A stretch of DNA of 64,000 bases, taken from the NCBI GenBank assembly GCA_029339195.1, contig JAPTJF010000327.1, positions 1-64,000 on the forward strand, read 5' to 3'. The DNA comes from Micractinium sp. NFX-FRZ (Eukaryota; Chlorophyta; Trebouxiophyceae; Chlorellales; Chlorellaceae). Under the pieces are notes generated by a model, which was not told the origin of the DNA, did no database searches, and worked only from the letters and a program-made list of their open reading frames with translations. Shown piece by piece: positions 7,818 to 61,900 of the stretch. The position numbers and the translations under genes were made by a program. Position 1 is the first letter of the stretch. Each line of letters begins with the position of its first letter.

Positions 7818-10800
7818 TCACCACGTGCCCACCGCGTTTGCTCCCGGGTTCTGGAACAGCTTGAAGCCCCAGTTGGTCTCCAGGGCGAACGGCTCTGCAC
7901 GGGAATGCACCAACAGTGTGGGTGACGCAGAAGCGGAAGCATACGCACTGCAGCTTGAACTGCCCTCCGGCTCGCTATTGGTAAGAAGGCAACCAGCTGC
8001 TGCAGCTAGTGGTGCAGCTTGCAGTCTGCCTGACCCCCGAATACCCCCCTCCCACATAGATGTGCCAGTACTGTCACTTTGTCCCACCCGCCCTGCCAAC
8101 TAAGTGCAACCACACTCTCTCACCGCACGCAGCTGCGAACATAAAACACTCTGCTGTGACACGCGCTGTGTGCGACCCCGCCCTGCCCCGCCAACACCCC
8201 ACACCCCTCAATGAGTGCCCCCATGTCCCCCGCACCGCTGACGGTGACCCCCTCCGCGGTGACCTTTGCGATCTGGAACTTGTTGATGCTGTTCTTGTCG
8301 CGGTAGTAGCAGACCTGCAGTACCACACGGCTTGCCGTTAGCGCACATGCTACCGCCGGAACTGGCCGCGAACTCTCCTCGCCTCACATGGCGCACCCCT
8401 GCTGCTCACCACCCAACCATCCAACCCAGCGGATCAAGACCGATCGGCTGTAGCACACAAGGAACAGCCCGCCTGCCAGGCACCCCTCGTAGATCAGAAA
8501 CAAGGTGTGCACTGATCAGTTGCAGAGCTTACCTTGAGGCACTCGTGCATGAGCTCTGTTGCCTCCTCCTCGCTCATGTCTGGCCGGTGCTTCTCCCGCA
8601 TCAGCGGCCGCGCCAGGTGGTTGCCGAAGCCTGCGCGCGACAAGGGAACAGGGAGATAGGGGGAGGAGGACGAGGGGTTGCCAAGCGAGCGAGGGCAGGT
8701 GGGGAGAGGAGGGCAAACGGGGGCCAAAGCCAGGTGGGTGTCAAGACGGCCGGGGGAAGGGGCCGCAGGTGGGGATGGTCGCGCAGCTGGACTTGGTTGC
8801 GTGCCCGCAAACAGCGCAAACCGTGGAGTGCACCCTACCAGCTAGCCTGGCTGTCACATGCAGCCTGTTGCCGGCTGCGGTCCGGGCAGATGAAAGGTTC
8901 CCGCCACGCCACAACCACACCTGGTGCCCACCTGTCACTACACACGGTCCCAATGCATGCCCCCACTGCCCCCGCAAGTGCTGTTGCCAATGTAAAACAC
9001 CTGGTGCCCACCTGTCGCCAGGTGTGCATCCGTGTAGCTGGTGCCAATCATGCCCACCGTGCCCAGGAAGGGCTTGCCGCTGTAGAAGCCGCCCACCACG
9101 ATGCTGTTCCACAGGGGGTCCATCCTGAAGGCGGCGGGGGAGGGAGGAAAGGGAAATGACATGAGTCGTGGTTAGCCAGCACAAAAAGGGAGTTCCAAGG
9201 TTAATGCAGTGGCAGAAGCCGCCCACCACGAACAATGATTATGTTCCACGGAAGGTCCATCTTCAGGAGGAGGGAGGGAGGGAGGGAGGAAGGGGCGGAA
9301 GGGACGGAAGGAGGGTGGGAAGGAGGGGTGGAGGGGGGTGGGAACGAGGGACGGAGCAGGGTAGGGGCAGTAGGACACGGGGCAGGCGACGCGACGCGGC
9401 GTGCGGGGGGCGGGGCGAGGAGGGGCATGATGTTGCCTTTATGCTGCTGCCCCTCGGAACACTCCCCAAGTGCACGTCCCTGCAGCAGCCCTTCCCCCTG
9501 ACCCCCGCATCTCCCACCCCTCACTCGCTCACTTGTTGCGGCGGTTGTAGAGGACGCGCGTGAGGTAGGAGTGCACCTCTGCCGGCTTCAGGTGGTGGCC
9601 ATCGTCCATGCAGAAATCGTCGTCGCTCAGCTCCTCCAGCAGCCTACAAAAAAGCAGACAATTAGTCATTACTTACTAGAAGTGACACCTACTGTGACAC
9701 CTACTGTGAAGTTGAGAAGCAGCAGCTGGTTTGCCAACACACATAGCTCTGCACTGTGTGCCCGCCACGCAGGCAGAACGCGTCGCCGCTCAGCTCTTCC
9801 GGCAGCCTGCAAAAGCCCCTCCTATTTACTCCTGCGGTGGTATCGGCAGTCTCCCAGTGTATTGGAAGCTGCTGAGCTCGCTGCTGGCCCGCCACCCAGC
9901 CCAGGTGTCGTGCTCTGTGGACTGTTGGTAAGCGGGCACCGCTCTTCTGACCTCACGTTGTTTTCTTAAAGCTGCAGAGCTTGCCGCGTCTCACCCCCAC
10001 CCCACCAAACCCCATCTTCCGTACTTTATTTAACCCACTCCTATAGTATGTTGCAGCCCCCCTCACCTCATGATGTATTGGAAGTCGCTGAGCTCGCCGC
10101 TGGCCCCCACGATGCACACATCATTCACCTGCAGCCACGTTGGCAAGGAAGGGGCCACTTGCACGGGTGGGGCAAGGCGGGATGGGCAGCCTGGAGCGGG
10201 TGGGACTGTGGCGAGGCCACAGCAACACAGGCAGGTTGCCAGGCCATTCCGCGTGGTCTGCCACGCCGCCCGCACGCTGCAGCATTGCCCGCCACCCGCC
10301 ATGCACAGGAGAAGGGCTCTGCCCTGGCTAGCTCTGCGCCCTGGCCTGGCTGGTGCGGCACCAGCCCGACAAACTAAACACTGTAGCGCGCTGAGGCTAG
10401 CTTCAGGCCTCTCCCAAAGCCCGACGCTCCTCGCACACCCTCTACAACCCTGGGCCCGCTAGCGCTGCTGCACCCAGCTCACCTTGCGCAGCCGCTCAAA
10501 GGCCTTGTACCGCTTGGTGCTGCCGTAGGCGCCTGCGGTACAAGGGAGCGGGTGCAGATGGTGAGATGGCGCAGCCTGGTGTGGCCCAAGCGCCACTGCT
10601 GGGAGGGCAGCTTCAAAGCGGCATGACCCGCGGTGGCAGCGGGACTGCCGGGCAGGGCGGCAGCGCTGGCAGGAGGCAGCACCGCCGCACTCACTGCCCC
10701 ATTGCCTGCATGCACCGTCAGGAAGTGCACCAGCCTGCACCTCCGCCTCGATCTCAGTGAGGCTTGCAGGCAAACAGGAGCGCCGCTGCCACCTATACAT

Positions 10801-11600: not shown

Positions 11601-14600
11601 ATGGGCCGCGGAAACAGGGGTGGCAGCGGGCGGGGAGGCGGCGGCCGGCGCTGCGCTGGGCAGCGGCCGCCACAGCCCACCGCGCAGCCGCCCAGCGGCG
11701 ATGCACTGCGAGTGGAGCTGCGGGCGGCGCCCGAGTTTTATGCAGCGCTGGCCAAGCGAGGTAGGGGTCCTGTGCAGGCACTGGCTGCGTGCCGCAGCGG
11801 CCACCTGGCGGTCGTGTGGTACTCGGGCGGTGCCCGAGGTGTAGCCAGCAGGCACCGTCGGCAGTTACCCCTTCTGCAGGGCAACACAGTTCCCAGCTGA
11901 GTTTTGATCTGTTGCCACGGGATCTGTTGCCACGGTTTCCAGGAATCCTGAGGGGGATCTGATTCTTGGCCCGTGCCCCTCGCCTGCCCGGCCGCCCCCC
12001 GTGCAGTGTGCCCGGCCGCGGCGGCAGCGGGCAGCAGCACCACCGCCCCCTCACCCCTGGGCACCAGTGTGCTGCAGATGGTGCGTGCACTGCTGCTTAT
12101 CAGCGTGCCTGTTCCTGTGCCCGTGCCTGGGCCAAGCCTCGAGGGCCTGTCGGGGCCTCTGGACACTTCCCGCTGTCTGCGCACCCTTGCACAGTATCCA
12201 CTGCTACACAAGCCGCATGTCTGCTGTGCTGCCTGCTGGCTGTGTTGGTGCATGTGCTGCGCACGTGGGCTGCCTCCCTGCACAGCCGCCTGTAAGCTGC
12301 CAGCCTTGCCTGCGCCCCCGCCTGCCTGCCCGTTTCTTTTTGCAGGCAGAGTGGAAGGACCTGGGCGCTCTGATTGGCTGGTTCCGGTGAGCAAAAGGGG
12401 CGGGCCTATGGGGTTTGAGGCATGGGGATCCGGTTCCGGCAAGCAGGGCAGAGGCATGCTACAGCTTGCGCCGGCAGCTTGCAAAGCAGAGCGAAGGACC
12501 CTGGCGGGTGGCCTGGCGAGGACCAGCTTCCCGGCTCAGCCTTGTGTGCGCCGCCGCCTCCCTGGCAGCAGCGGCAGGGACAGCTGACGCTCCCCCCCGG
12601 TAGCATTCATGCCCTTTGTTACTGCACTCATATCCGTGTGCAGGGACGGCATCGACGCTGACCCTATTGGCGAGCATTTGTTTGCCTTCTTGGATTCCTG
12701 CTTTCTGTCTGAACGATGTGGGGACTGAATGATGTGCTACTATGTTGTGTCTGCGCAGGGACGGCATCGACGCTGACCCTGCTGCTGAGCTGGCCTTCTC
12801 CCCCAAGCTCACCAAGTCGCAGCGAGCCTCGGTGCACGGGTGGGTGGGCGGGTGGGTGGGCATTGGGCAAGTGGGTGGGCACGTTGGTGGGCGCACGCGG
12901 GCACCGTTGTCCTGCCCTGGCGCTGTCTCCTTGCTTCATAACACTGCAGCACCGTCACCGCTGTGGATCTGGGCGGCCCGGGCTCGTGGGTCCGGGCGGC
13001 TGCCATCAACACGCCGGCAGGAGCGGGGCGCCTGCCTTGTGCTGCACCAACGAACCATCAGCCCGGCTTGTTGCGTGTGCAAAACGTGCCCATTCCTCTA
13101 CTTCCACCCACTTGCACCGTGTACCGCTGCAGCACGGCCACTGCTGTGGGGCTGGGCGGCCTGGGCACCGCCAGCCGCGGCGTGGGGGAGGCGCGCTGCG
13201 TGGTGGTGCTGGCCAAGGAGCGTGCGCTGCGGGTGAGGGCGTGCAAAGCATAGCATGGCTGCAGTGTGGCTATGCTTCTCAGCAGCAGGGCAGTCTGTTT
13301 GGACGGCTGTGGTGGTAGGGCCAAGGATGGGGCGCTACGGGCGGGAGCCAGCCAGGCTCTACTTGCGTCTCTTGGAGATTGCGGCGGCAGTGCAAAAAGC
13401 CCTCCTGTCCGTTTTCACTGTGTTCACTGTCCCTTGCCCCACTTTCCTCTCCCTGTGCAGCCCGCCCTGGACGAGAAGCAGGACTTCCAGGCCTTCTGGG
13501 TGTGGCGCTGGGCTGGGCAGCAGGGCCTGCAGGTGGGGCACCGGGGTTTTGTTACTCTGCACTTGTGGGCTGGGCAGCGGGGCCTGCAGGTGTGCCGCTG
13601 TGAGTTTACTTGTTGTTGAATAGGCGTGGTCAGCAGGCGAATCGCAGCAGGCACAGCACGGGGCAGCGGTGGCGACAAGAGCCTCATGCGCACGTGCCTC
13701 GCCTGCTGTGCCTGCTGTGCAGGTCAGCCGTGATGAGGTGGCGGAGATGATCCTGGGAGGCGGCCTGTCTGCAGAGCTTCAGGTGAGGAGGCCAGCCTGG
13801 GGTGCTTGCCCCGCCACACGCTGCTTCCCACGCTCTCTGCGAAAGGAAGAGCCGCTTGCAAGTGGCAGAGCAGTTTCTTGGGCAGAGGGGCCCCACGGTG
13901 CACCCTCCCTTATCTAACGCTTCAGGCTGCGCACCCACTAACCACTGCACCTCCTCAAATCACCCATCCCCCTGCGCCCACCCATCCATTTCCCGTGCAG
14001 GCGATTTGGGACAAGGGGTCGGCGGCCCAGAAGGGCGTGCAGCAGCTGTGCGCCGCCATTGCGGCGGGAGACGAGGCGGCGGCGGCGGCGGTGCTGGAGC
14101 AGCAGCCAGCCCTGCTGGCAGAGCAAGTGATTGATGTGGAGACAGGTAAGGCCATGCTGCTTCATCTGTCTACTGAATTGATGAGCGTGTTCATAGGAGA
14201 GCAGCAGCTGGGTCTGCTGGTGCTCCAAGGTGTTTGATTTGCATTTGGGCCTCACCGCCACCCTCCGCCGGGATCACCCTCCGCCACGGGAGCGGTGCCG
14301 CAGGTGTGGTGCCGCAGGTGCGGTGCCGCAGGTGCGGTGCCGCAGGTGTGGTGCCGCAGGTGTGGTGCCGCAGCCTAGGCCTACCACCACCTTGCACCTG
14401 CCTGTCCCCACACTGGTAGCCGCCCCAGCCCTCCTCGCCCTCGTTGTTTTTGTTACTCCGTAGGGATGGCGCCACTGCCGATGCCTAGATCCTGGGAAAC
14501 CACTTGCCTGTCCCACCACCGATTCCCACCCCTCCCCTCCTCAATTTCCATTCAATTCGTCATTGCGCAGGGGTGGCGCCGCTGCACCTGGCTGCCGAGC

Positions 14601-17600
14601 GGGGGCAGGCCCCTCTGCTGGAGCTGCTGCTGGCAAAGGGGGCCGCCCTGGATGGCGTGGACGGCCACGGCTGGACCGCCCTGCAGGCAAGTATCCTCGA
14701 AATGTTTGCGTGTGTGTGTGTGGTTGGCACGCTGGGGCGGCCACGGCCGGACCACCCTGCAGGCAAGCTTTTGTTTTGTGTGTATGAGTGCGGGTGCAAG
14801 CATGTTGGCCACCGGGCAGCGCTGCAGGCAAGCTTGTCCCCTGCTGTGTACGTCCACGCTGACCAGGCGACGCACCCCTGTTGCGTGACCCCTGACTGCA
14901 TCCTTAATCTCCCTCCCTCCCTCCCTCCCTCCCTCTCCGCAGGTTGCCCGCAAGTATGAGCAGAGCGACGCCGAGGGGGTGCTGCTGCGGGCGGGAGCAC
15001 ATGACCCAGGTAGGCAGCACACCTGCAGCCGCCTGCAGCCTGCGTCCCAACTGACCTCCTCCCCCAACCCTGTCGATGCTCAGTAGCGGGCTCTCCGCAA
15101 ATCGCGTGCCAGCACGCCCGCCTGCCGCTCCCACCCCCACCTGCTGCTTCAATGGCAACATCAATCCAGAGCCTGGCACAAGCCCTGCCCCCTGTTTGCA
15201 TCAGCCAACATGAGCCCTGCTCCCCCTGTGCCGGCACTGCCCGCAGACAAGGGCAAGTCGATCCTGGAGAAGGAGGTGCGGCTGCACGCCGAGGCCGATG
15301 CGGCCGCTCCCCAGGCCAACGGCAGCAGCAAGGCGGCGGCGGCGGCGCCGGCGGCCAGCAGGGGGGCGCCGCGTGCGGCTGGGGGCGGCGCTGCCAGCGA
15401 GGCGGGGTCGCAGGAGGTGCAGGATGCGGGCGACTCGGTGGCCTCTGGTGAGTGTGTTCTTTGTTGTATGAGGTACACAACATCATACATTTTTGTTATG
15501 TATCTGAAATGGGCGCCCACCAGGCGCAGGATGCCGGCGACTTGGTGGCGTCTGGTAGGCGGGCAGGCTGGGGCACACAACCTTGAGCCGGGGTTGTAAG
15601 CAAGCGGTGGGTGAATCGAGAGGTTCAGGCATGCCTTGTTCCAGTGGCCTGTGCTGCAGCAAATCAACATATGTATGCTGTTGCGTCCCTGCTCTCCCTG
15701 CTTCACCCGTGTGCTGGTTGCCGCCCCAACCCGTGGCACTGTGGTTGAAGCAGCATGTACTGCTGCGCAGGCCACTCACGCTTCCCATCCCACCCCACAC
15801 CCCACTCCTCTTTGGTCCACACCCTGCAGTGTGCGGTACCGAACGGGACAACCTGGCAGCGGAGGTGGGCAGCAACGCAGAGGACTACGTGGATACCCAC
15901 TACCAGGCAGCTTCCACCGCTGGTGCGTGGTGGTGGGTAGCACAAAGGCAATACGGTGGTCGTAATACGCAGGCGCGACTGTACACGCCAGGAAGCCTTC
16001 CGCAGCTGTTCCTGTGCTGTGCTGAGCTGACCTGTGCTGTGCTGTGTGTGCGTTGCTCAGTGCACACTGCTTGGCAGCAGCGCGGCCGGCGTGGCTGTGC
16101 ATGCTGCCGCTCGCCCTACCCGGCCCCAGCTCTGTGGAGCCTGCCCTGCCCCCATCCTTCATAACACAGCATTCCTGCCCCTGCCCCTGCCCTGCCCTGC
16201 AGCCTTCTCCCCCAAGCTGGCAGTTGAGGAGGAGGCGGAGGAGGAGGAGGAGGATGACGTGGCGGCTGCTGACTCAGCACGGGCACAGGAAGAGGCGGCT
16301 GATCTTGCTGCCAAGGCCGCAGCCGAGGCACAGGCGGCGGCTGCCGAGGCGGAGGCGGAGGAGGCGGCCGTGGCAGCTGCGGCTGCCAAGGCCGCAACAG
16401 AGGCAGCGGCGGCTGCTGCTGCCGAGATGGAGGCGGAGGCTGCTGCTGTTGAGGCAGCGGCAGAGGCAGAGGCAGGGGAGGAGATGGAGGAGGCAGATGA
16501 CGAAGATGAAGATGAGCTTGAGATGACGTTCAGCGCGTGCGAAGCCTTTGAGAAGGCCGTGGCAGCGGCGCAGGCGGCGCAGGCGGCGGCCGAGGCGGCC
16601 GAGGCGATGCCCGGGGCAGAGGCGGCTGAGCGGGCGGTCGCTTTCCGGAGGGAGGAGGATGCCGCGGTGGCGGCGGCGGCGGCGGCTGCCGTGGTGGCGG
16701 GCGACGCTCTGGAAGAGGTCTTCGAGTCCCACGCCCTGCAGCAGCAGCAGCAGCTGCCCGGCCAGCTGGAGGGTGCATCCTCTTCAGTGGCCTCTGTGGC
16801 TGGCAGCGACATCACCGCACGCCACCTGGCGGATGTCTCTGACGTCGGCTCGGAGCGCCTGTCCACCGCAGGTGGGCACTGCTTTGTTGTTATTATGGAG
16901 TGTAGTGGCGTTTGCTGCGGGGTTGGATGTGGGAGGATTGGTGGCCGCTGCTTGCGTGCTGTGCCTCTCGCTCCTCCTGCCTGCCTGCCCGCACGCAGCC
17001 CAGCTGACCGATCCGCGTGCCCGCTCCTCTCCCTGTTATGCCGCGCGTGCAGGCTCCTCTCTGTCCACTGCCGCCATGGCGCCAGCACAGAGCCCTTTCG
17101 CCAGCTCAGCAGCCGACGGGGAGCAGCAGGAGCAGGAGGCGGCGCCCGCTGCGCAGGCGGCGGCAGCCGCTGCAGCCGCCGCGGTCTTGGCCACTGGCGG
17201 TGCCGCCGCGGCTGCCGGCGCTGCGCCGGTGGCGGAGGAGGTGCAGCCGCAGCCTGCGGACGGGCAGAGCGCACAGGTGGCTGCAGCCGCTGCTGCTGAG
17301 GACATCAAGGCTCTGGCCGCCTCTGCGGCAGAGCACACAGTCGGCGCCGCCAAGGGCACTGCCGCAGGTGCGAGGCAATGCTTGTGCCTGTATGCCTCGA
17401 GGTGGCAGCTGGCTTGGGTGGCTGGCAAGTAGCTGCGCGGGCCCCAACAGGGCAGAGCCGGTGTTCTTTGCAGAGGCCTCAGGCTGGCATGGCTGCTATG
17501 TATGCTGTGACTGGGTATGGCTGTCATGCTGCTGCGAGGCGGGGCGCCTCCCTGTCGTTCCACTTCCAGGAACCGCACACCTCACGCTTGCATGGTTTGT

Positions 17601-19488: not shown

Positions 19489-22400
19489 TCACAGGAGGTC
19501 CCCCCATAGCCGCTGGTCGCGGTGCCGGTCGAACTGCAGCACGCTGCTGTAGTGCACATCTGCAGGGGAAGGGGGGCATCGAATTGCGGCAGGGCGGGGT
19601 GTGAGGGCTCTGCGGTGCAGGGGGGACGTTTGAGTGGTTCGCTGCACGCATGTACTGCAGCGTGTGTGGGAACAGTGCCTGGTCACGCACAGGCAGTGGC
19701 TGGACGCGCACAGGCGGTCTCCACTCCAAGCTCTGCACCACCCGGCCGCACCCCACACATTAGATTCTGCTCCTTCCCGCCCCACCTGAGATGGAGACGT
19801 ACAGGCGGTCCCCCTCCGGCGTAAAAGTGATGCCCGCCAGCTCGCCAAACAAGTCGATGACCTGGCTCTGCCCGTAACTGCACATGGGAGGAAGGGGCCG
19901 TGAACACCGGGATGCGTTAACGTGAGGACGGCACCTACCCAGGCAGCCGCGTGGCACAGCGTCACCTCATCCGCCGCTGCCACTTGCTGGGCCTGGCCCC
20001 CGCTGCTGCATCGAATACACGCTGCATCGAAACAACCTGCCGCTGCTCATAGTGCTACACGCCCCGCGGGTGCAGCACGTTTGCATTTGCTGCACGCTGG
20101 TGACAGGACTACAACCCACCAGGCCCCACCTACCCCGCGGCTGCGTCGTATATCGTCACGTAGTCTGCGGGCTCCGCCGCCGCCAGGAAGCGGCCGTCGG
20201 GGCTGCACGCAGGCCGGACGGGGGTGGGGGAAGGAGGGTCGATGCTTGAAGGTTGTATTTGAGGGTGGAACAACCCACACCAGTCCTGCCCCCTGGAACC
20301 ACGGTTCCCTGGGATGCAACCGACACACTACAAAAGGGAGCGCCCAGGGTGGCAAGGGGCCGTGCCGCCCCTCGTGCCAGCAGGGGGCATTGGGGGGGTG
20401 ACTCGGGATCTGATAAATGGGTGCACAGCCAGTCACCGGGCGTGCGCCTCTGCCCCCCGCCTGCTCTCCCTCTGCCCCCTGCCTCCTCTCCCTGACCATG
20501 CCTCTGCACCTTTCCTTCTCTCCCAGACCCCACCTCTGGCCCGCGCTTTCTTCCCCTGATCACAGCACTACCCCCTGCCTCCTCTCCCTGACCACACCTC
20601 TGGCCCGTGCTCTCATCCCCTGACAACCTGAACCTCCGCCCCCCTCACCTGAACCTCAGGCTGCGGATGGCGCCTATGTGCGCCTTCAGCAGCGCAAAGC
20701 TGGTGGCCGGGTAGCGCAGGTCCCACAGCCGGGTGGTCATGTCCTGCAGGGCAGGGCAGTACACGTGTGTGGCAGGCGGTACATTGAAGGACATACAATG
20801 CACAATCAGGCAGTGCACAGTTGTGCGGCTGGGTTGCGCCGGCCTGGCGGGCGGGCCGTCATGCCCTGCCGCAGCGCAGCAGTGGAGGTACGGTTGCAGC
20901 ACAGCAGCACGACAGCCAGAGCAACCTGCCTCTTGCCCCACAAATGCTTACAGCCCCTCACAACTCCCCTCCACCACCACCACCACCAAAGCAACCTATT
21001 ACAACCATCCCCCCACTCACCTGGTTGCCAGTGGCCACCACGTGCCCATCTGGGTGCCACGCCGCTGCAAAGCTGTAGTCAAGGTGCCCCTTCAGCTTCG
21101 CCACCTGGCGCCCGCTGGACGCCTCGTACACGTGGGCCGCAGGGTCGTCGCCGACCGTGAGCAGCAGGCGGCTGGTGCCGGGCTGTACTGCTGTGTAGTT
21201 GACAGCCCAGGGCAGGCGGTACTGGCTGCGGGCAGCAGAAAGATAAGGACACGGAGCGAGGGAGGGGGATGGTGAGCAGCAGGCGGCTTGTACCGGGCTG
21301 TACTGCCGTGCAGTTGACGGCCCAGGGCAGGCGGTACTGGCTGCGGGAGGCGGGGGAGGTAGCGAGGGGGAGGAGCGGGGGAGGGAGGGGCAGAATGGGT
21401 GGTGGGGTGGGTGGGGGGGGGGCTAGGGGAAGGCGTGGGGTATTGAGGGGCAGAACTGACTGCAGCAAGCAGCATACATGACATGGCAGGCACCCACCTG
21501 ACCAGCTGGAAGGTCTCGGCATCAAAGGCGCGCACCGTGTCGTCGTTGTTGCTGCACAGCAGGCGCACCTGCACACGCATGGAGGGCAGAGCACATGTGC
21601 TGTACATCTACACGAATCTGCAAAACCAACCAGTGCAGTGCCAGGCAGGCGCCAGGCAGGGCGAGCGGCAAATTGGCACGGCAGGCGGGGCCCAGGGGCA
21701 CCCATGCTTTGCATGCCCCCTGGAGCCGCCCTACGGTCCCAACTACCCCATGGGAACAAGAGAGCGCAAAAGAAGCAAGCGCACCTGCCCTTCCGGCGCC
21801 CGGAAGATCTCTATCGCATTGGTGATCCCGTTGTCGCTCGTCGTCACCCGCATGCTGCACGCAAACTGGCCCTCCCCGCCCACGCGCTGCGCCACCAGCT
21901 CCCCACCAAAGCCGCCGCCTGCCACCAGGCCCTCCCTGCACAGATTGAGCGCGGGACGCATGGACAGCAAGTTGTTGGGACAAGTTGAAATACACAGCTG
22001 CAAGCAGGGCTGCGCCACCAGCTCCCCGCCAAGAGCTGCCGCCTGCCACCAGGCCCTCCCTGCACGGGATGCGCGTGGGATACACGTGGGCGAAAAGGTA
22101 AGAGCAGTAGACAACTGCAAGCAGGGCTGTGCGACCAGCTCGCCGCTTTCTTGTACACCGCCGCCTGCCACTACCGTGACAGCGGTAGCGGTGGACAGAA
22201 GGGGATGTTGGGAGTGCTTGCAGCAAGGGCAGGGTAGGGATGCATACACATGTGCGTGCTCTCATGTGTGCATGGCAGAGCTCATGCCAAGGCAGAGGGA
22301 GTGCACAAGGTAGGGGGCGTGCCCAAGGTGGGGGGCGGCACGTTGAGATACACGCACACTACGCCCACCCAGCCCACCCGCCGCCCCGCCCACCCTGCAC

Positions 22401-24564
22401 ACCTGGCGCACCGCGCACACATGACAGACGTCATGCCAAATCAGAGCGAGCGCACAAGGTAGAGGGCGTCACCCAACGGCAACAACTATGCCCACTCAGC
22501 CCACCCCGCCGCCCACCCTGCCCACCTGGCGCACAGCGTGCACAGCTGCACCTGGCCGATGCCCGGCGCCACTGCCCCCGTCACCCCGCCCGACACATCC
22601 ATCACGGTGGAGGGCCCCCCGCTCTGCGCCACGCTGTTCCAGTGCTGCACCCGGTTCTCGTGCACGAGGTACACGTCGTGGGCTGCACGGGAAGAAGGGT
22701 GTGGGAGGCTGTGGGAGGGTGTGGGAGGGGGTGGGGTGGGGAGGCAGCGGGTGAGCGACGCTGTTCCAGTGCTGCACCCGGTTCGTGCACTAGAACCCCC
22801 GGAGGAATCCCACCTGTTGTTGCCCAGAGCAGGTTGCGCAGCTGGAAGTGCACGATGCTGCTGCGCGCCTGCCGCCAGTTCCTGCAACATGATGATGCGG
22901 CGGGCAAGAGAATTTGGTGGCCGTGGTTTCACACCCATATGAAGGTTGCAGCTGCAAGTGCGTGCTGCTGCTACGCGGCTGCTGCCGGCGCTGCAAGAGA
23001 ATGCCCCACACGCGCCCCTAGCCTCACCTGTAAAAGTCGAAGAAGCGGGCGCCGGGGCGGACCTTGGCAGCCTCCGCATCGATGCGCGGCTGAGCTGCCG
23101 CCACGTCGTCCTCTAGGTTGAAGTAGTTGTGGTACTGCTCGTTGCGCACCGCCTGCAGTACCACGGGCAAGCCGGGGGGGAAGGGCGTCAGGTGTTGCGT
23201 GTTTCCTGCAGGTACAAGTTATGCTCAGCATGTACTGCTCCATTGCGTGCCCCCCGGCAGTGCCACATGCAGGCCCGGGTGCTGTGGGTGGGAGCGACGT
23301 GCGGGCGCTGCCCGGCCCGCTGCGCATGCAGTAGCAGCAGCAAAGTGCGTGCACCTCAGCAGCGGAGCGCGCCTCTAGCGGCAAAGGACATGCACGCCCT
23401 GAGATCAGCCCTTTAACACAACCGCCTTCGATACCTCCCCCAGCTGTGCTGCGTCAGCTCCCAGGGGTGCCAAACGTCACAAAATGCAGCAGGCACCCTT
23501 CGCAAAACGCACCCATGCTCTCACTCAACTAGCACCCTTCCGGCAGTACACCCCACCCGGCTGTACTGCTCCCACTCACCCGGTACCCCTCCCGGCTGTA
23601 CTGCGTCAGCTCCCACGGGATGCCCTGTATGTCTCGCCCAGCACCCAGCTGCACCGCCGTCGTGTCCCGCACCATGTCCTCATCCTCGCTAAACACCTGC
23701 GGCCCAGGGGACCACCAAACAGATGGTAAATTACGTACCCGTACCACCGAAATCAAAGAGCATGTGAATCAGCGGCCAGCTGCTCCGTCATCGCCTCCTG
23801 CACCATGTCCTCATCCTCGTTAAACACCTGCGGCCAAAGTGGATTCGAGAAGCGCGCATAAACAGATTTGACATGATTCAGCGGGCAGCTGCAACGCCGT
23901 TGTGTACCGCACCATCCTCGCTAAACACCTGCAGTGCAGTGGAACAACCAAACAGATGGTTGATGGCATACCGGCCAGCTGCACCTCGCTAGATTGAGTT
24001 TGTGGAGTGCATGATTAGTGGCCAGTTGCACCATCACGTGTGCCGCACCACATCTCGCTCAAGACTTGCAGTGAACAACCAACTCAACGGATGGTTGAGT
24101 GAACAGGGGCAAGCAGTGCAAGCAGTTTGCCCAACACCTGCAGCGCAAGGCCCCACTCCATAGTCAATGCATGGGTCCAATATGAAGACCACACAGCCAA
24201 CAGCATGCGGTGGAGCAGGCGCCGGCGCCGTGCGCGGCGCATACCCCCTGCCTCCGACAACCAGGCAACGCCCCGGCAGCAGAACCATACCGTTGGCTCC
24301 CCTCTATCGACAGCGCTACTGGCTCCACTTGCTGGAAGACTCCCTGCCTGGCACTGCAAAGCTCTCCAGCGAGGTGCCTGGCACTGCTGGCCGGCGTATC
24401 GCGGCGGGTGGCGGCGGTGGCGCCGCACTGCTGTGCTGTAGACCAGGAGCCCTCCCGGTCCCAGCGCGCACCTCGAGATCGATCTCGTCCTCCTGCTGCT
24501 CTTCCTCGCTGTCGGGGAAGAGGGCCCGCGGCCCCACCTCGTCCGAGTCCGAGGAGTCCTGCAT
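19489..24564 (-). CDS. WD40 repeat protein, C2A9.03-like family
   Basis: Twelve phase-consistent exons give about 437 aa: 24564-24472, 23696-23580, 23152-23028, 22881-22814, 22682-22526, 21935-21785, 21568-21498, 21225-21021, 20743-20649, 20202-20134, 19877-19786 and 19559-19489. The acidic N-terminus (MQDSSDSDEVG) is followed by AGRDIQGIPWELTQYSREGY and RNEQYHNYFNLE. This is the conserved head of the plant and fungal WD-repeat family named after S. pombe C2A9.03. WD blades follow: VHFQLRNLLWATT, NNDDTVRAFDAETFQLV, HLDYSFAAAWHPDGHVVATG, TTRLWDLRYPATS, and RFSPDGRFLAAAEPADYVTI. The C-terminus DVHYSSVLQFDRHRD also fits that family. The molecular role of the family is not well defined; it is presumed to be a scaffold. 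Introns 1, 5 and 7 carry copies of the following exon starts. It is divergent from the SPP gene. Confidence 0.85.
21255..21350 (-). repeat. Copy of WD40 exon 8 start in intron 7
   Basis: About 85 bp around GTACTGGCTGCGGG and GTGAGCAGCAGGCGGCT match the exon 8 acceptor end at about 21160-21225 with few changes, 115 bp away. The AG acceptor is retained. Confidence 0.85.
21885..22170 (-). repeat. Three tandem copies of WD40 exon 6 acceptor end
   Basis: CTGCGCCACCAGCTCCCC plus GCCTGCCACCAGGCCCTCCC occurs in exon 6, again at about 22008-22063, and in degraded form at about 22128-22170. Spacing is about 120 bp and the copies precede the real acceptor in the transcript. Confidence 0.85.
23630..24075 (-). 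repeat. Degenerate array of WD40 exon 2 acceptor copies in intron 1
   Basis: The block CACCATGTCCTCATCCTCG then TAAACACCTGCGG, spanning the exon 2 start and its AG, is seen at the real junction (23670-23705). It recurs at about 23800-23836, 23908-23936 and, strongly decayed, 24045-24072. Flanking intron text such as CCAAACAGATGGT and CAACGGATGGT recurs with it. The unit is about 100-140 bp. Confidence 0.8.
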
Positions 24565-25855: not shown

Positions 25856-28800
25856 ATGACCAAGGACGACGCCGGCCTCCATGCGCCGCTGCCAGCCCCG
25901 CTCGCTCACGCGGCGCTGGCCGTGCTTGCCTTGGCGCCGCTGCTGGTCCCCGTGGAGACCAACACCAACATTGTGCTGACTGCGGTGCTGACCGTGCTGG
26001 TGGGCTCCTGGCGCTCCGTCAAGCCTGAGCCGCCGGCAGAGGCAATGACCAAGAAGGTGGGCAGTCGGCGCCCGAGCTTACACACTTGCTGCCCGCTGCT
26101 GCTGCTGCTTGGGGTTCTTCTACTTTGCTTGGTTGTTGTGTGAGCCATGCCGTGTTTCAGGCCAGCTGATGCCTTGAAACGACAGCTTCCCGGATGAGCA
26201 GCGTGGGGCACTTTGCACCCACTGCCGTCCAGCACCACTCGCTGCCGCCGCCCGACCCGCCACGTCTGCCCTCGCTCCTCCCGCTTCCACCACCCCCCTC
26301 ATCTTTCTTGGATCAAGCTTATGAAGCCATTCGTAGCACCGGGCTGTCTGTTGCTCGCTGCCTCCCCTGCCCTCCCGTTTGCACCCACGTTGCCATCCAC
26401 CGACCTCCCTGCCGTTCCTCCCCTTCCTCCTTCCCTCCCTCCCGCCTTTCCACCTGCGGAAGGACGCCATGAAGTTCCCCCTGGTGGGATCCATGGTCCT
26501 CTTCTCCCTCTTCCTGGCTTTCAAGTTCCTGCCCAAAGACATCGTCAATGCCATCCTCTCAGGTGGGTGCTGAACAGGGGTGTACAACACTCATGTTGTC
26601 GCGCCTTCCAGCACAAGCACCGCATAAGGGTTGGTGTCGGGTGCTGGCCAATGCCATCCTGTCGGGCAGATGTGTGCTGCGCTGTTGCTGTTCCGTCCCT
26701 CCGAGTGCTGGGTGAGGTGGTTGCTGGGTGCCAGTGTCGGGGCCATTCTCTGGTGGTGGGTGCGCTGGTGCTGCACCCTGGCCGTCCTCTTGCGACCCGG
26801 CCTTCCGTCCTGCTGCCCACCGTGTTCCTGGGCATGCTGGCCATCGTGGCCCGTGTCGTAACCACAGCTTGTGCGTTCCACTCCATCTACAACTGCTTTC
26901 CCAACACCCACCCTCTGCCCACAGCCTACTTTGTGTTCCTGGGTGTGCTGGCCATTGTTGCCTGCCCCTCGCTGCTTTCTATCTTTGCACGTGTGCACCC
27001 AGCACATGACTGCTCCTTCCTTCCTTCCTTCCCAACCTTCCCTCCTGCAGCCTACTTTGTGTTCCTGGGCATGCTGGCCATTGTTGCCTGCGTGGCGCCC
27101 CAGCTGGGCGCCCTCTTCTCCCGCTGGTGGAGCGAGCACGACGTGGAGATCCGGGTGCCCCCCATCCCAGTCATCCTCAAGGTGGGTTAAAGATGTTTGG
27201 GAGTGTGAAAGAAGAGGCAGAGGGTGGCAGGGTGGCGCAGGCACGAGATGGAGATCCGGGGTGACACCCAGGCTGTGGAGTGCACATCGCTGGCGGCTCT
27301 GGGGCGCTGCTGCCGCGTCCATTTGGGACCCAACCTTCCTGCCATGTTGCAAGCTCAATATGACGCCATTCCTTGGGCGCAGCAGGTCTGGTGTTCACTT
27401 TGGGCTGCTCACATTCAACCCGCTGGAGGCATGGCTGGCGCTGCCTGCGTGCGCAAACCTCCCTGCCATGCTGCAAGCCTCACACGTGCTTTTTCCCTGT
27501 TCTCCGTGTTTGGTGCAGGAGGGCCTGGAGTTCACGTTCACCCCTCTGGAGGCGCTGCTGGCGCTGCCCGCCACCCCCTTCTGCGTGTGGTACTACCGCC
27601 GCAAGCACTGGTTTGCCAACAACGTGCTGGGCCTGGCCTTCAGGTGGGTGTCTTGTGCTGTAGTTGTGGGCTGTTGAATGGTACAAGTGTGGTGTTGGTT
27701 GACTCAATATGGGCCGCACCATACCCTCCGACATCGTGGTGGGCCTGGCCTTCAGGTGGGCTCCTGGAGGTCATTTGTTGTGTTATCAAGCATGACAACT
27801 GGAGGCAGCAGTATCAGTGCCAGTGCTCACATCTTGCAAGCCTGGCCAGCGCTGCTGCCGCCGACCGGCCTGCCTTGGCTCGCTGTTGTGCCCCACCCTG
27901 CCAAACTCCTGGCCCCATACGTGTGCGCGCTGCTCACTCCTGCCCTGCAGCCTGCAAGGCATCGAGCACCTGTCACTCGGGGCGGTGCAGAACGGCGTCA
28001 TCCTGCTGTGCGGCCTCTTCTTCTACGGTGGGTGGATGAGCGGACACGTTGGGTGCATGTTGGGTGCAGGGTTGGTCCTCTTGCTTTGTTGTGCAAATCC
28101 GCGCCATCTTGCTCTGCAGCCTCGTCTGCAAATGTGAGTGCCAGCTGTGTTTGTGCCCGGTGCGTGTGGTGTGGTGGTGTGCGCTGGCAGTGGCCCCGAG
28201 CAGTGTGTGTGCTGTTTGCCTGAGCAGAGCTGCCGCGCACTGCGCCGCACTGCTGGGCGCTATACTTTCCCTGGCAAAACCCCTCCCGTGCCCCTCCCTG
28301 CCCTGGCCCCTGCAGACATCTTCTGGGTGTTTGGCACCCCTGTCATGGTCTCCGTGGCCAAGAACTTTGATGCCCCCATCAAGCTGCTCTTCCCCCGTGC
28401 CCTCGACGCTCTGGGTGAGTGCTGTACCCATGACCCGTCTGTGTGGCTTCGCCCCGCCCTGCCCAGGCTCGGACTTGGGGCACCTGGCCGGCGGCTTTGT
28501 GCACAGCCGGGTCGCCCGCCCCACTCTGGTATTGAGCACCTACCATGAGCAGATTGAGGCCACACGCGGCCCATGGTTGCATTCCGTGGCCGACGCTGCA
28601 GACGGCACGCGCCACTCCTCGATTTTGGGGCTGGGCAGTTGTGTGTGGTGTCCCCGGCATGAATCGTCACTCCATCATGTGTCAAACTGTGCTCTGTGCC
28701 GCAGTCGACGGCAAGCGCCAGTTCTCCATGCTGGGCCTGGGCAGTTTTGTGCCCCCCGGCTTGCATCACCAATCCACCAATCTACACGTGACCTCTGCAG

Positions 28801-31268: not shown

Positions 31269-31271
31269 CCC

Positions 31272-45611: not shown

Positions 45612-45931
45612 AAGGATTGGGGTTGGACGGTGTGGGGGTACCCACCCCAACCGGTGGCTAAAAGTGTGGGCGAGGATGAGGGGTGCCGCTCAGGGGCTAC
45701 CAGGCCCGGAGAGTGTGCACGGGCGGAGCGCCTGAGAAGAAAGCATGGAATGGCCAAAAGAGAAAGGATGGGGTGGCGCAGGCAGCCTAAGCGCTGCTGA
45801 ACCCGTGCAACACAAGCAGGGAAGTCACAAAATTGAAAAGCTTGTCGCAAGCACAAGTGTTGGGGCTTGCACGAAGCCTTCAGGCCTCCATTGATCCCTC
45901 CAGTTGACTGATGCGTGCATGCTGTGCCCCC

Positions 45932-55925: not shown

Positions 55926-58900
55926 TCATCCCGTGCGCTGCATCTTGGCTGGCATGCTGCTGGGCTGTGGCCCATTGCTCCCCAGCACGTTGTGCAGCTG
56001 CCGGGTAGTGGCAGGCGGGCCCGGTGTCTTGGGCTGCGCGCCCGCTGCCGCCGCTGCCGCTGCCGCCGCCGCTGCCGGGGCGCCTCCCTCTGCCTGCTCC
56101 TGCAACGCCCGCTGGCTCTCCTCGTAATACTGTGGGAGCAACAGGTGGGGAGGAAGGAGCGAGAGGGGGTTGGAAGAGTGCGGTCATTATGCCAGAGGAA
56201 GGCTGGAACTGATCCCCTGCACAAGGCGTCTCCGCACCCCAACTGGTTCAAACAGGTCTAACCCGAGCCAGGCGCAGCCGTGCCTGTCCCCGAAGGCCCT
56301 TTCACACAGACAACCAGCCACCACAGCACAGGCACGCGTCCACACCCACCTGGTTGGGATGGTTGATGCCAGAGTCGCAGGAGCAGCCGTGCTTGCCCTC
56401 CCAGGCCGCTGCGCAGGCCAGCTGGAAGTGGCCTGCCTTGGCCTTGGAAGCCGCCTCCTCAATCTTGGCTGGGGCCACCTGGGCACAGAGCAGTCAGAGG
56501 CAAGGCAGGCGGGGGCGGCAGGGAGCAGCGGGTGAGGGAGGGGTGAGCCGTGACGGCAGGTGGCACTAGCAACTTTGTAACTTCCAAAATAAGCAACGAG
56601 CCAAGGGAGAGAGCAGCGGGTCTGTGCATGCTGGCAAGCAGCGCATGTGGCTGGCGCTCCTGTGTGCCATGCGGCAACTGGAGGCCTGCGCTGCCCCGCC
56701 ATCCTGCCTACCCACACCAAACTGGCTGCAGGGCCTCCGCACTGACTGTCCCCCCCCCGCACCTGCAGGCGGGTCAGCGCTGCTCGCAGGCTCTCCTGGC
56801 CAAACGTCTTGTATGGGCAGCCGTGCACCTGGCCCTGCCGAGGGGGCAGGCAGGCAGGGAAGACGGGCAGGCAAGCAGGGAAAGCGGGCAGGTGAGCAGG
56901 CGGATGGCAGTGCTGGCCGCAGCCGCAGCCGCAGCAGCGGCAGCTGGTTCATCCAGATGTGCGACGTGGCGCTCTGGTGCCACTCGCACAGCCAGCGTGG
57001 CACAGCCCAGCGTAGCGGGGCACGCGCAGGGCAGCAAGCGCTCACCACGCAGGATGCCTCTCTTGCAGGCGCAGGTACAGTCCAGAACAGCGCATCACAG
57101 CAGCGCCCAGAGCCCGCCCAGCACAGCCCAGCACAGCACAACCCTACGACACATACACAACATGCAAGACAAGTTGAGCAACAGAGGCTCACCACGCCGG
57201 GCGTCGAGCCGGTGATCTTCATGCCGGAGCAGATTCAGTAACAAAAATAATGCAGCGCCCAGAGCCCGCCCAGCACAAGCAACCCCACAGGAGGGGCTCA
57301 CCACGCCGGGCGTCGAGCTGATGATCTTCATGCACGTGTAGGGGGTGTAGTCCTTGCGGTTGCCCTCTTTGCCGTAGTTGTGCCGCACATTGTACAGGTA
57401 CTGCTTGTCAAACTTCTCGCCCGGGGCCACCTGGGAGGGGGAGGAAAGAAGGAAACAAGTGTTTGCCTCAAAAGTATGTACTTGGCTGCCGCTGGTACTC
57501 TTACTGAATCGAGCTTCTCCGCCGGGGGGGGCATCTGGGAGGGGAAGCAAACGAATGGGCGCACAGGCATGGAGGACGGTGGGAATGCTTGCGGGAGCTG
57601 CTTGGCGCAGGCACCGCTTGTCAAGCCATCTGCCTTGGGGGCCACACGGGGGAAGGTCAAAAACAAGGCCAGGGATGGCGCGTGGGGCGCCTCCACCACC
57701 TGCTGCTTGCCCGCATGCCCTGGCCCCAACAGCCGCCCACCAAATGAACGCTCCACACCGCCCTCACCACTGACACATAATCACACGTGCACACAAACAA
57801 AGACCCCCCACATGCCCGCACCGCTGGCATGCACCAGCCTCCAACCCATCGTCATCCCATACCCCACGCCCAGCCCATCGAGCAAAAACACCTACCGGCG
57901 CCATCTCGGTGCGCCAGAAGCGGATGGCCTCCTCCAGCGGCAACCCAATGCCCTGCAGGCGGGGGGAGACACAATGTGTGGGGTCCAGACGGACGCGCAC
58001 GTCGCAGAGTGGGGCTTGCCGGCAGGGGGGCGCCGGGGATGCAGATTCGGCACTGGACGGCACTCCTGCCCACGGCCATGCCTCGCGCACCACGCATGCC
58101 CCCTCATTGTCTCCAATACGCTACATGTGCAACGCACCGCACCCTGATTTTGATGCCGCACTGCATGCGCGCCCCGTGTGCATGAGCTGTGCACGTCGGC
58201 CCAAGCTGCACTGCCCCTTCCTCCCCTCCCCTCCCACCCCTCCCTCCACACCCTCTCACGCAAATGCCCCTCCCCCACACCCTTCCCACCCCACGACACC
58301 TTGAGGACAAGGCCTAACTGTATGCTTGAGGTGGGTGCGACCCGTGGCCCGAACGCTACAGACATTATACCTTTCCCATTGCGTCCTCTCCAAACACAGC
58401 CCCCACCCACCCACCCACCCACCACCGCACCTTGAGGAAGAGGCCAAACTGCATGCGCCCCTCGTGCTTGAGGTGGTGCGAGTCGTGCAGCGCCTGGTAC
58501 ATGGAGGCCATGCAGAGAGGGAAGGAGTCGCGGACGAGGCGGGGCACGTCGGCGGCTGCAGCAAGGGTTGGGGTCCAAGGTTGGGGGTGTGGGACAAGAG
58601 TGGGAGTGCACATGGTGACCATGCAGGGCAGGAAGGGCTCGCGCACCAGTGGCGGGACGTTGGGGGCTGCCAAGGATGTGTGAGGGAGCAATGTGTGAGC
58701 GCATTCAATGCTGGCGGAAGCAGTGTGGGCTGGTGCAATGTGTTGGCATGTGCAATGGCCCGCATGGCAGGGTGCAGACTTGTGTTGATGGGGGGTGGGG
58801 GCGTTGTGTTGATACGCCCGCCTCCCCTGCCTCTGATCTGGCTGCAAGGCGGAGCGGCGGCCGCAGCGGCAGGCAGGCAGGTGGCCAGGCAGGCGCTCAC

Positions 58901-61900
58901 TCACCGCTGACAGTGCCCACCACGCCGCGCTTCTCGGGATCGGAGAAGTCGGGACCCAGGTAGCTGCAGGGCAAGGAGAGGGGGCCCGGGGGAATCTAAA
59001 TCTCAGTTGCAGTTGGTGGCTGAAGCGTGGGGCAATGGTCAGGTCCTGTGCAAGCGCAGGGTGGAGGCATTGTTCATCACAGGGGCCGAGGCGGGGTGCC
59101 TCCTCCGCCGCCCCCACAACCGCCACCACTGCCAGTACATCAATCCACACACACAAAGAGGCGTCACACCCTCCCTACGCACCGCTGGCTCAGGCTCTCC
59201 ACGACGGGAGCGAGGCGGTCCGCCTCCTCGGGCGCCACCACCGCCGCCCATCGCCGCGCCGTGATGACGAGCGCCTTGCTCAGCTGGGCCCTGCAGGCGG
59301 AGGGGGGGGGGCGGGCAGGCAGGCAGGCAGGTTGATGTGCATTTTTATGGCTGGAGGGAGTGTGGGCAGCTTACAGCGCTTGTAGCGCCGTGACCAGCAG
59401 TGTCTTAGTCAGCTGGGGGTGTGGGTGAGAGGGAGGCAGGCAGGCGTATGTGTGGGTTGGGCGCTAGCGGTGGGCAACATCTCCGCATTGTGGTGACAAG
59501 TGCCCTGCTCAGCTGGGCTTGCCACGGTGGAGAAGAAGCAAGAGCAGCCGGTGTGCCACAAAGGCATATACCCGCCAGCCCTCCCTGCCTCCTCAAACAG
59601 CATGCTTCACTCTCTTGTGTCCCCAACCAGTAACTGCCATGCTGTGTTCTCCCCCCTCCCGGCCACCCCACCTAAACGGCTGCACGCTGCCAGCACTCCC
59701 TCCTCTCCACACACCAACAGAGCGCTGCCCGCTTCCCTTGCCATCCAGAATCTGCGTCCACCCTACCTGAACGGCTGCACCACCAGTGAGCTCATTTGGT
59801 CCTTGGACACGAAGGCGTACCCACCAGCCAGGTACACCCGCCGCCCCGCCACCAGGTCGGGCACCTGCTCAAAGGGCACCTGCAGGGGCGCAGTGGGGCA
59901 GAGAGAGAGGGGATGTTGAAGGGTTAGAAGGTGGCACAGATCAGCCCGTGCCGGACCAGGTCGGCACCTGCTCAAAGGAAAAAAACAAGGCAGATGTCAG
60001 GGTGGGGGGTGGGGGGAAAGGGGAGAGGGAGGGATGGCCTCTATCAGCGGTTTGAGAGCGGCCCCTGCCGGGCCATACGCGCCTGCGTGACAGAGCAGGT
60101 TTTGGCGTGCCACAAGGCGCCGCCGCCTGCTTTCACAGCCATGTTCTCCTCCCCTACCACCCCACAACATCATCACCCGCAATCCAAGGATGTATCCCAT
60201 GGAACTGAAAGCTTGCCTTGTAGAAGCTGTCGTGCGCCACCTCATTGCGCAGGATGGCCGACGCCAGCTGGCCGGCGCCCAGGCTGGCCGCCACCGCCGC
60301 CAGCGCCTCCCGCACTTCCTCAAAGTCGGGGCGCCCCAGCGGGCGGAAGGGCAGGCTGTTGGCCTCCATGAACGCTTTCTGTGAGGAGGTGGAGGAATGG
60401 GGAGGCGGGGTGAGTGGGCAACTTGTAAGGGAGGAGGTGAGGGAGGGAGGGCAGGGTGGCACCGCCATAGCTGGTGCATGCTCAGTGAGGGAGGGAGAGC
60501 TGGGTGGCTGTGCACAGTCCAACCCCTACCCCTCCCTTGCCCGCTGAGTGCATGATAGGGGTGGGGAGGCAGGGTGAGTAGGGGATTATTGGGAAGGAGG
60601 TGGATAAAGGGCAGCTCTGTGGCTCTGCACGGTCCAACCCCTACCCCTCCGCGTCCCGCTGATGCGTGCCTGCTCCGAAGGCGGCAGCTCCACAGAAGCG
60701 CGCCCATACCACAAGCTTGATGCCCCGCCCCAATAACGCCTACTTTCACATGTCTCCGGCCCCGAGCGCAACAGCAGCCTGCTGCCCCCCTTCCCAGTCC
60801 TGCTTTCACCAACACTCCTACCTGCTCCGAAGGCAGCAGCTCCTTGAAGCGCGCCCGGAAGAGGTCGCACTCCTGGTTGATCATCCAGCGCCGCAGGTCC
60901 TCTGCACAGGGGAGGGGCAGCCCAGGGAAGCGCAGGTGTGTGTCGTATCATGTTCTTGGGAGGGCAGGGCGAGCGGGGCCGGGCAGATGCAAGCAGCAGC
61001 AGAAGGCAGCAGCAAGAAGGCATCGGCACATGCAGCTGGCATGCTGCGGCACGTAGCTGTGCGACAGTAGGCAATACGAGAAGCAGCAGGGCAGGCATCG
61101 ACACGCAGCGGCATGCAGCTGAAGGTATCTGTGCGACAGTGGGGGATACGAGCAGCAGCAGACAGCAGCAGGCTGGCATCGGCATGCAGCTGGCATGCTG
61201 CATAACATACCTGTGCGGCAGTAGGCCAAGCGCAGCACATGGTGTGACACCACGTCCTTGCGCTGCCGCTCCTCCCGGGTGGGGGCGCTCATGTGCTTGT
61301 CATACAGCTCAACAACCTTGTCCTGCGGTGGGGAGTATAGAGCAAACAGTAGCGCAACGCAGACAGTGGGGAGGTGGAAGGCTAAGCAAGGGGCAGAGGG
61401 GGCCGGGGGGCAGCAGGGGGAGCCGCGGGCCGCAGGCCAGGCGGAACCAGCACGGCACGACACGTGGCTTCCCATGATCTGTACTCTCCACCTGCACCTG
61501 CACCTGCCTGCCCCAGCAACTCGTGTAGGGCACGCCCCACTGTCCCGTCCCCACACCCCCAGAATGCAACAGCTGTAGGAACAAAGTCAACAGCCGCTCA
61601 CCTGCATCTGGTCGGGCCGGAAGCCCTTGACCTTCAGGTCGTCAATGCCCTTGAGCACTGCAAACAGAGGGTACCACGGCCGAAGACGACAGGTGTGAAG
61701 GGCCCGCCAGCACCCCGCTACCTCCGCTGTGCCGCCGCCTTGCACGGCGACAGGCGGCGGCCCAGGGCAAGTGCCTTGCCGCATGGCGCAGCCTGCACCC
61801 CCTGATGAGGCCCTGCCGCGGGCCCTTACCGCGCAGGCGGTCCATGGCGAAGCGCTCAAACTCCTCAATCGCAATCTCGCCGTCGGGCAGGTCGGTGTAG

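What the first reader, a model, noticed from the sequence alone, without database searches (positions are those of the whole stretch)
9000..61300. Introns throughout the window carry copies of the adjoining exon end, splice site included
In at least seven of the genes (PSMB4, R3H-ankyrin, WD40, SPP, SAP18, permease, PRIM2) introns contain degenerate duplicates of 20-90 bp that straddle the real splice junction. Copies of an exon's 3' end plus donor lie just after that donor; copies of an acceptor plus exon 5' end lie just before that acceptor. Units are about 57-180 bp and copies decay with distance from the real junction. This looks like recurrent tandem duplication across exon-intron boundaries, a way of lengthening introns and creating arrays of competing splice sites. 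I know of introner elements and of short junction repeats in other algae, but not of this pattern at such density; I cannot search to exclude an earlier description.
Basis: partly seen in the sequence, partly recalled or inferred. Interest (0 to 1): 0.88.

Follow-up and report, generated by a model that had tools for sequence, protein, structure and literature searches.

The report
Splice-junction tandem duplications that lengthen introns
In this green alga, short stretches of DNA (often 80-140 letters) that straddle the border between a coding piece and an intron have repeatedly been copied in tandem, which appears to make introns longer and leaves decaying decoy splice sites beside the real ones; the pattern is real and fits a known kind of mutation.

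Summary
The window lies in a 66 Mb, GC-rich nuclear genome of a Chlorella/Micractinium-type green alga. In 264 kb, 51 of 774 exon ends have a copy of themselves in the adjoining intron (0.4 expected); in 50 kb held out, 10 of 153 (0.08 expected). Copies lie on the exon end's own side; reverse-complement, wrong-side and mid-exon controls are zero or near zero. Exon-to-copy distance peaks at 100-140 bp, whatever the exon content. Exon-intron spacings ignore reading frame; repeats inside exons keep it. Introns bearing a pair are longer by about one unit (372 vs 245 nt), though length bias explains part. Best reading: short tandem duplications across splice junctions, spliced out and decaying. Not borne out: decay with distance; copies in the permease. 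The window is about 2.5 times richer than the other discovery loci. Open: junction-spanning units outnumber purely intronic ones 58:14, and exonic parts look younger than intronic parts. Tandem duplication as a source of introns is known; this junction-growth form was not in the papers searched, but the key Chlorella genome paper could not be read.

The parts
26463..30211 (+). Signal peptide peptidase (SPP) gene, best worked example: 7 exon ends with copies at threshold and 1 more seen by eye
   Evidence: sequence read by eye; gene model; pairs; protein co-linear with 8 relatives
26547..26570 (+). Exon 3' end plus donor; degenerate copy at 26650-26672 (d 103)
   Evidence: not among the pairs, seen by eye
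26801..27091 (+). Real acceptor/exon start at 27051 with two upstream copies (26822-26851 and 26922-26965), d 235 and 126
27409..27571 (+). Acceptor-side copy of exon 27519-27643, d 123
27616..27760 (+). Donor 27643 and its copy 27755 (CAG|GTGGGT vs CAG|GTGGGC), d 112
28601..28838 (+). Acceptor of the catalytic GLGD exon (28801) with two upstream copies; three 36-nt exon parts and two clearly homologous intron fillers, a true tandem array
28866..29086 (+). Donor-side copy of exon 28801-28915, d 168
29566..29741 (+). Acceptor-side copy of exon 29708-29771, d 111
30205..30340 (+). Young-looking array: 57-bp unit, 2.4 copies, 97% matches, three identical donors at 30211, 30268 and 30325 (11.2 bits each)
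8917..10110 (-). PSMB4 (proteasome subunit) junction copies: 8917/8997, 9084/9214, 9607/9770, 9858/10074
12637..15556 (+). Ankyrin-repeat gene junction copies: 12637/12752, 12944/13127, 14659/14735, 15415/15522
21157..24098 (-). WD40 gene junction copies: 21157/21272 (93%), 21886/22009, 22625/22752, 22831/22943, 23429/23581, 23639/23770, 23646/23886, and the purely intronic 23872/24010
22271..22544 (-). WD40 gene: further tandem pair 22271-22421/22420-22544, d 149, second copy reaching 19 nt into the predicted exon 22526-22682
   Evidence: not among the 94 pairs
32416..32544 (-). SAP18 acceptor-side copy, d 86
57183..61226 (-). DNA primase large subunit (PRIM2) region: 57183/57292, 58297/58428, 58499/58610, 59249/59478, 59851/59955, 60498/60613 (intronic), 60669/60821, 61028/61101 and 61029/61183
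   Evidence: the gene model 45,476-62,007 fuses PRIM2 with other genes

Best explanation
These are decayed products of recurrent short tandem duplications of genomic DNA, mostly 80-140 bp, whose unit happened to span an exon-intron junction. Duplicating exon end plus splice site plus at least about 40 nt of flanking intron yields two splice sites. The one attached to the intact exon stays in use, so the coding sequence is unchanged, the intron grows by one unit, and the inner copy decays almost freely. Units inside exons survive only if they keep frame. Repetition gives arrays and longer introns. SHOWN: own-side copies at a preferred spacing, residual homology of intron flanks in many pairs, frame-blind spacing, near-flat codon-position pattern, exon-proximal reading conserved in SPP. 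SUPPORTED WITH A CAVEAT: intron length gain of about one unit. INFERRED: that the exon-proximal site wins through exon definition, and that the DNA event is break or nick repair with fill-in, or slippage.
For: Own-side 45 of 833 exon ends versus wrong-side 4 of 831, as tandem duplication predicts and retrocopying or transposition does not. Intron flanks also homologous: 11 of 31 acceptor and 16 of 30 donor flanks exceed the null 95th percentile; a contiguous array at 28,601-28,838 and near-full-length tandem pairs elsewhere. Spacing mode 100-140, independent of exon content: r 0.15, 0.09 and 0.11. Introns overlapped by both copies of a pair: 49, median 372; minus the unit 248.5 over 56 intron-pair combinations; the other 445 introns 245. 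Spacing mod 3: 24/25/18 for exon-intron pairs, but 17 of 17 multiples of 3 inside exons, from 5 exons, and 44 of 44 in the ungapped scan. Mismatches 67 of 678, 81 of 678 and 105 of 670 at codon positions 1, 2, 3 over 56 pairs. At least 40 nt of intron in the unit in 51 of 51 pairs closer than 180 bp (10 wider pairs not measured). Using the copy's site would shift frame or add a stop in 49 of 61, yet the SPP protein is co-linear with 8 relatives. Not dispersed: 7 of 94 have hits elsewhere in 264 kb, 6 of those from one repetitive exon; the SPP stretch gave one match, itself, in the whole genome.
Against: Exonic parts of copies are better preserved than a neutral model allows from their flanks: median flank score 24 in 44 pairs, about 50 expected, 14 for unrelated flanks; the copy at 28,707 is 36 of 36 identical to the exon while the fillers are 45 of 58 with 14 gap columns. 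Units of 80-140 bp touching an exon outnumber purely intronic ones 58 to 14, where exposure is 1:1 and neutral detection predicts about 1.2-1.3:1. Length-biased sampling explains part of the intron length gain: picking introns by length gives a median of 314, 372 or more in 3.8% of draws. The frame result inside exons is partly built in, since the gene finder extends exons through open frames. Few young full-length copies were seen. Gene models are home-made, with no RNA evidence, and the SPP splice was finished by hand.
Confidence: 0.77

Rival explanations
1. Tandem duplication followed by continuing exon-to-copy homogenisation (short-tract gene conversion or template switching). The exon, held by selection, keeps refreshing its neighbour copy, so exon-homologous parts stay alike while intron parts drift. 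This would also help explain the junction excess.
For: Flanks more diverged than the exon part predicts; trio at 28,601-28,838 with an exact copy between diverged fillers; 58:14 junction excess.
Against: Detection selects well-preserved exon parts; the fillers are indel-rich, which lowers scores; all tests are indirect.
Confidence: 0.3
2. A junction-targeted process, for example transcription- or splicing-linked nicking at exon boundaries, makes units of about 115 bp preferentially at splice junctions.
For: The 80-140 bp mode holds 58 of 94 exon-touching pairs but 14 of 37 purely intronic ones; 58 of 72 has p between 3e-6 and 0.006 for assumed ratios of 1.2 to 2.0.
Against: Exon extent of the copies is broad (0-69 nt) and unit length is independent of it; if copies are mostly old (K about 0.25-0.3), detection alone gives 2.9-3.6:1.
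Confidence: 0.2
3. The copies are functional alternative exon ends or decoys kept by selection.
For: 24 of 30 donor copies keep GT/GC and 18 of 31 acceptor copies keep AG; 35 of 61 have an intact core and at least 5 bits.
Against: Codon-position pattern nearly flat, no frame preference in spacing and 49 of 61 would disrupt the protein; donor copies stronger than the real site 0 of 30, acceptor copies 6 of 31. The retention fits partial neutral decay.
Confidence: 0.08
4. Introner-like mobile introns or other dispersed repeats.
For: Many introns affected in one genome.
Against: Copies are local; no dispersed family seen (the genome-wide search skips very common words).
Confidence: 0.02
5. Assembly artefact, with haplotypes or reads stacked in tandem.
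For: 838 contigs; the read type is unknown.
Against: Most copies differ by 5-30%, respect junction side and ignore frame only outside exons.
Confidence: 0.03

Closest known systems
Intron gain by tandem genomic duplication (review PMC3443670 and Drosophila cases PMC2891723, passages seen; potato RdRp PMC4974935, start of abstract in a search listing)
   Same: A short tandem duplication in a gene is absorbed by splicing without changing the protein.
   Different: There the unit lies inside an exon with an AGGT motif and makes a NEW intron of unit length. Here the unit spans an EXISTING junction and lengthens that intron. The new-intron signature is rare here: 4 of 96 and 2 of 96 short introns, 0 of 393 long ones for both comparisons; at least two of the six are junction arrays already listed (27,051 and 30,211).
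Short tandem duplications from repair of adjacent nicks or patch-mediated breaks in plants (recalled, not read)
   Same: Comparable unit scale and a plausible source.
   Different: No link to splice junctions that I recall; breakpoint chemistry could not be tested here.
Introner elements (PMC9860276, search listing only)
   Same: Intron change on a genome-wide scale.
   Different: Introners are dispersed families inserting new introns; these copies are local.
Tandem exon duplication / mutually exclusive exons (PMC9013439, search listing only)
   Same: Exon sequence duplicated beside itself.
   Different: Here only exon ends are copied, without regard to frame, and they decay.

Membership tests
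Intron gain by tandem genomic duplication | Unit wholly exonic and containing AGGT; new intron length equals the unit | tested here: not met
   Copies straddle existing junctions; gain signature 4 of 96 and 2 of 96 short introns, 0 of 393 long ones for both comparisons
Intron gain by tandem genomic duplication | Tandem direct duplication in the gene, coding sequence preserved by splicing | tested here: met
   SPP protein co-linear with 8 relatives; splicing itself not observed
Introner elements | Many near-identical introns dispersed in the genome | tested here: not met
   7 of 94 pairs hit elsewhere in 264 kb, 6 of them one repetitive exon; SPP stretch gave one match, itself
Tandem / mutually exclusive exons | Whole exon copies, in frame, both spliced | tested here: not met
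   Exon part at most 69 nt, spacing frame-blind 24/25/18; splicing itself not tested
Minisatellite arrays in introns | Many copies of a short unit unrelated to gene structure | tested here: not met
   Periods up to 32 masked before counting; 58 of 94 exon-touching pairs are 80-140 bp apart
Nick-repair short tandem duplications | Breakpoint signature in new duplications | not testable with these tools
   Too few young copies; no mutation data

The most novel reading that the evidence does not exclude
In this alga a length-governed (about 115 bp) duplication process acts preferentially across splice junctions and is followed by exon-driven refreshing of the copies, so that exons continually 'emit' decoy junctions into their introns. 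It would be a main route of intron growth in Chlorellaceae and would work only because splicing there is exon-defined.
Probability: 0.25. Interest if true: 0.82.

Novelty: new variant of a known kind. Interest (0 to 1): 0.6.

Why it matters
How introns reach their length, and why green algae can have long introns in compact genomes, is open (PMC8226300, passages seen, says the advantage of such lengths remains unknown in Chlamydomonas relatives). Here intron growth would leave a countable trace. Of the order of 10^4 natural splice-site duplications (extrapolated from 51 of 774 junctions in 264 kb, not a random sample) would form a built-in experiment on which of two near-identical sites the spliceosome chooses. 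Survival on both sides, 31 acceptor and 30 donor pairs, suggests exon definition in a unicellular alga. It also warns annotators: my own gene finder took several copies for exons.

Tried and rejected
BLAST self-hits drop diagonals near the main one (it missed the 57-bp array), so the spacing distribution was redone without BLAST. A trinucleotide filter left 26 pairs, judged too strict, and was replaced by tandem-repeat masking. An ungapped comparison first suggested that similarity stops dead at the splice site; gapped comparison showed residual flank homology, so a splice-site-precise insertion model was dropped. Pure survivorship (random duplications, exonic ones purged) was kept as the base model but leaves the 58:14 excess unexplained unless copies are mostly old. 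Intron birth by exonic duplication: little sign. Intergenic DNA: 0 pairs against 8.0 by relocation, 4 in the ungapped scan; little intergenic sequence was predicted. Ungapped non-exonic spacings mod 3 were 73/56/57 for remainders 0/1/2, a slight excess of multiples of 3 that I did not pursue. Density against GC or intron length: weak, r -0.28 and +0.28 over 26 chunks. Clustering: variance 16 against mean 2.8 per 10 kb; rich chunks hold conserved genes (SPP, WD40, prolyl-tRNA synthetase), not explained. A viral-contig scan for sister SPP DNA found nothing. Left out of counts: exons under 45 nt, introns under 60 or 80 nt, low-complexity ends; exon-exon pairs and the window's last 4 kb in the density figures.
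Full report
SETTING. The window is positions 1-64,000 of contig C327 in a 66,065,352-base, 838-contig genome, about 65% GC. The spliced signal peptide peptidase (SPP) protein is 92% identical to an unnamed protein and 83-87% to Micractinium and Chlorella sorokiniana proteins, so this is a Chlorellaceae green alga near Micractinium. Gene structures came from a self-trained hidden Markov gene finder that I wrote, run on the window plus 20 stretches of 10 kb: 548 exons (median 108.5), 510 introns (median 250), donor (C/A)AG|GTG(A/G)G, acceptor TGCAG|G. Pfam recovers proteasome subunit, ankyrin, WD40, SAP18, Trp/Tyr permease, primase large subunit and, in L020, prolyl-tRNA synthetase from these models. 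No RNA evidence was available.

IS IT REAL. Within 400 bp, 104 direct-repeat pairs were found in 260 kb and none in one dinucleotide shuffle. After masking short-period repeats, 94 pairs remain in 264 kb against 2 inverted pairs. Exon 5' ends match the upstream intron in 25 of 417 tests and 3' ends the downstream intron in 20 of 416. Other introns give 0 of 1,251 and 0 of 1,248, reverse complements 0 of 417 and 0 of 416, the wrong-side intron 2 of 416 and 2 of 415, and mid-exon segments 0 of 218. With another scoring, 51 of 774 junctions have an own-side copy where 0.4 are expected. The frozen model and threshold on five held-out stretches (L030-L034) gave 10 of 153 (0.08 expected), reverse complement 0 of 153, wrong side 0 of 60. 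The window is richer (24 of 203) than the other discovery loci (27 of 571, of which 11 in L020). The 314 kb examined are 0.5% of the genome and not a random draw.

ANATOMY. The 94 pairs by predicted class: 44 intron/junction, 14 exon/intron, 9 junction/junction, 10 intron/intron, 17 exon/exon. Random relocation predicts about 20, 13, 11, 22 and 8, and about 19 in intergenic or exon/junction classes where none was seen. Distances peak at 100-140 bp. Exon content of the copies is 0-69 nt by ungapped extension; all 51 pairs closer than 180 bp have at least 40 nt of intron in the unit. Unit length does not depend on exon content (r 0.15; 0.09 and 0.11). In SPP seven exon ends have copies at threshold and one more is seen by eye. 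The catalytic-exon acceptor at 28,801 has two upstream copies in a clear tandem array: exon parts 29 of 36 and 36 of 36 identical to the exon, fillers 45 of 58 identical with 14 gap columns. At 30,211 three identical donors stand 57 bp apart.

WHY TANDEM DUPLICATION. Copies sit on their own side of the exon (45 of 833 against 4 of 831). Flanking intron sequence is homologous beyond the null 95th percentile in 27 of 61 pairs. No dispersed family was seen. The 49 introns overlapped by both copies of a pair have median 372 nt, 248.5 after subtracting one unit, against 245 for the other 445 introns. Longer introns offer more room, and picking introns in proportion to length gives a median of 314 (372 or more in 3.8% of draws), so part of this gain may be sampling. 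Exon-intron spacings ignore frame (24/25/18), whereas in-exon repeats keep it (17 of 17 from 5 exons; 44 of 44); the latter is partly built into the gene finder.

WHICH SITE IS USED. In SPP the reading through the exon-proximal sites, finished by hand, is co-linear with eight relatives, seven of them named algae. Using the copy would shift frame or add a stop in 49 of 61 cases. Copies keep GT/GC in 24 of 30 and AG in 18 of 31; the copy is stronger than the real site in 0 of 30 donors and 6 of 31 acceptors; the gene finder's preference for strong sites biases this. Mismatches at codon positions 1, 2 and 3 are 9.9, 11.9 and 15.7% over 56 pairs: nearly neutral copies plus, I infer, some synonymous change in the exon. 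Survival on both sides (31 acceptor, 30 donor pairs) suggests that the site next to the full exon wins, as in exon definition; this is inference.

WHAT DOES NOT FIT. Among units of 80-140 bp, 58 touch an exon and 14 are purely intronic, although exposure of a 115-bp unit is equal (0.341 and 0.345). Neutral simulation predicts about 1.2-1.3:1 with constant birth, but 2.9-3.6:1 if most copies are old, K about 0.25-0.3. Intron flanks are more diverged than the exon parts imply: median score 24 in 44 pairs against about 50 expected. Simulation ties that flank score to K near 0.3, but the exon scores (14.9 excess at 14-18 against about 51 at 18 or more) to K about 0.15-0.2. Selection of well-preserved exon parts and indel-rich introns can explain part of this; exon-to-copy homogenisation could explain the rest. 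Copies do not decay with distance.

LITERATURE. Ten searches showed no description of this pattern in the rows listed. Passages were seen in PMC3488318, PMC2891723, PMC8226300 and PMC3443670. The Chlorella variabilis genome paper is not held; I have an uncertain recollection that it discusses intron structure, so priority is unsettled. Duplications of exonic AGGT segments making new introns are documented (PMC3443670, PMC2891723). Nick-repair duplications in plants are recalled, not read.

VERDICT. A real pattern in every part of the genome sampled at more than trace depth; best read as short tandem duplications tolerated at, and perhaps favoured at, splice junctions, lengthening introns. New variant of a known kind.

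Noticed in passing
30205-30340: Three identical donors in a 57-bp near-perfect array; the best place to look for alternative donor use.
   Followed up: partly
L020:3046-9877 (prolyl-tRNA synthetase): Another hotspot: 15 pairs in 10 kb not wholly exonic, 11 of 30 junctions with copies; the gene finder even took a copy of the LWQEG motif exon as an exon.
   Followed up: partly
window and L009-L028: Pairs are strongly clustered (variance 16, mean 2.8 per 10 kb over 26 chunks); the rich genes look conserved, perhaps because slow exons keep old copies recognisable.
   Followed up: partly
20447-20624; 47813-48082: Minisatellites in predicted introns (22/32-bp and 24/48-bp units).
   Followed up: no
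41907-42797: C-rich repeats about 500-700 bp apart in a predicted intron of 1.9 kb.
   Followed up: no
predicted donors, window and L009-L028: About 9% of predicted donors begin with GC rather than GT; some may be decoys, not checked.
   Followed up: no
L021 (C13:40001-50000): GC 58.5%, lower than the other 19 stretches (64.2-67.5%), with short introns (median 165.5) and 2 pairs.
   Followed up: no
45476-62007: The gene model appears to fuse PRIM2 with at least one unrelated minus-strand gene.
   Followed up: no
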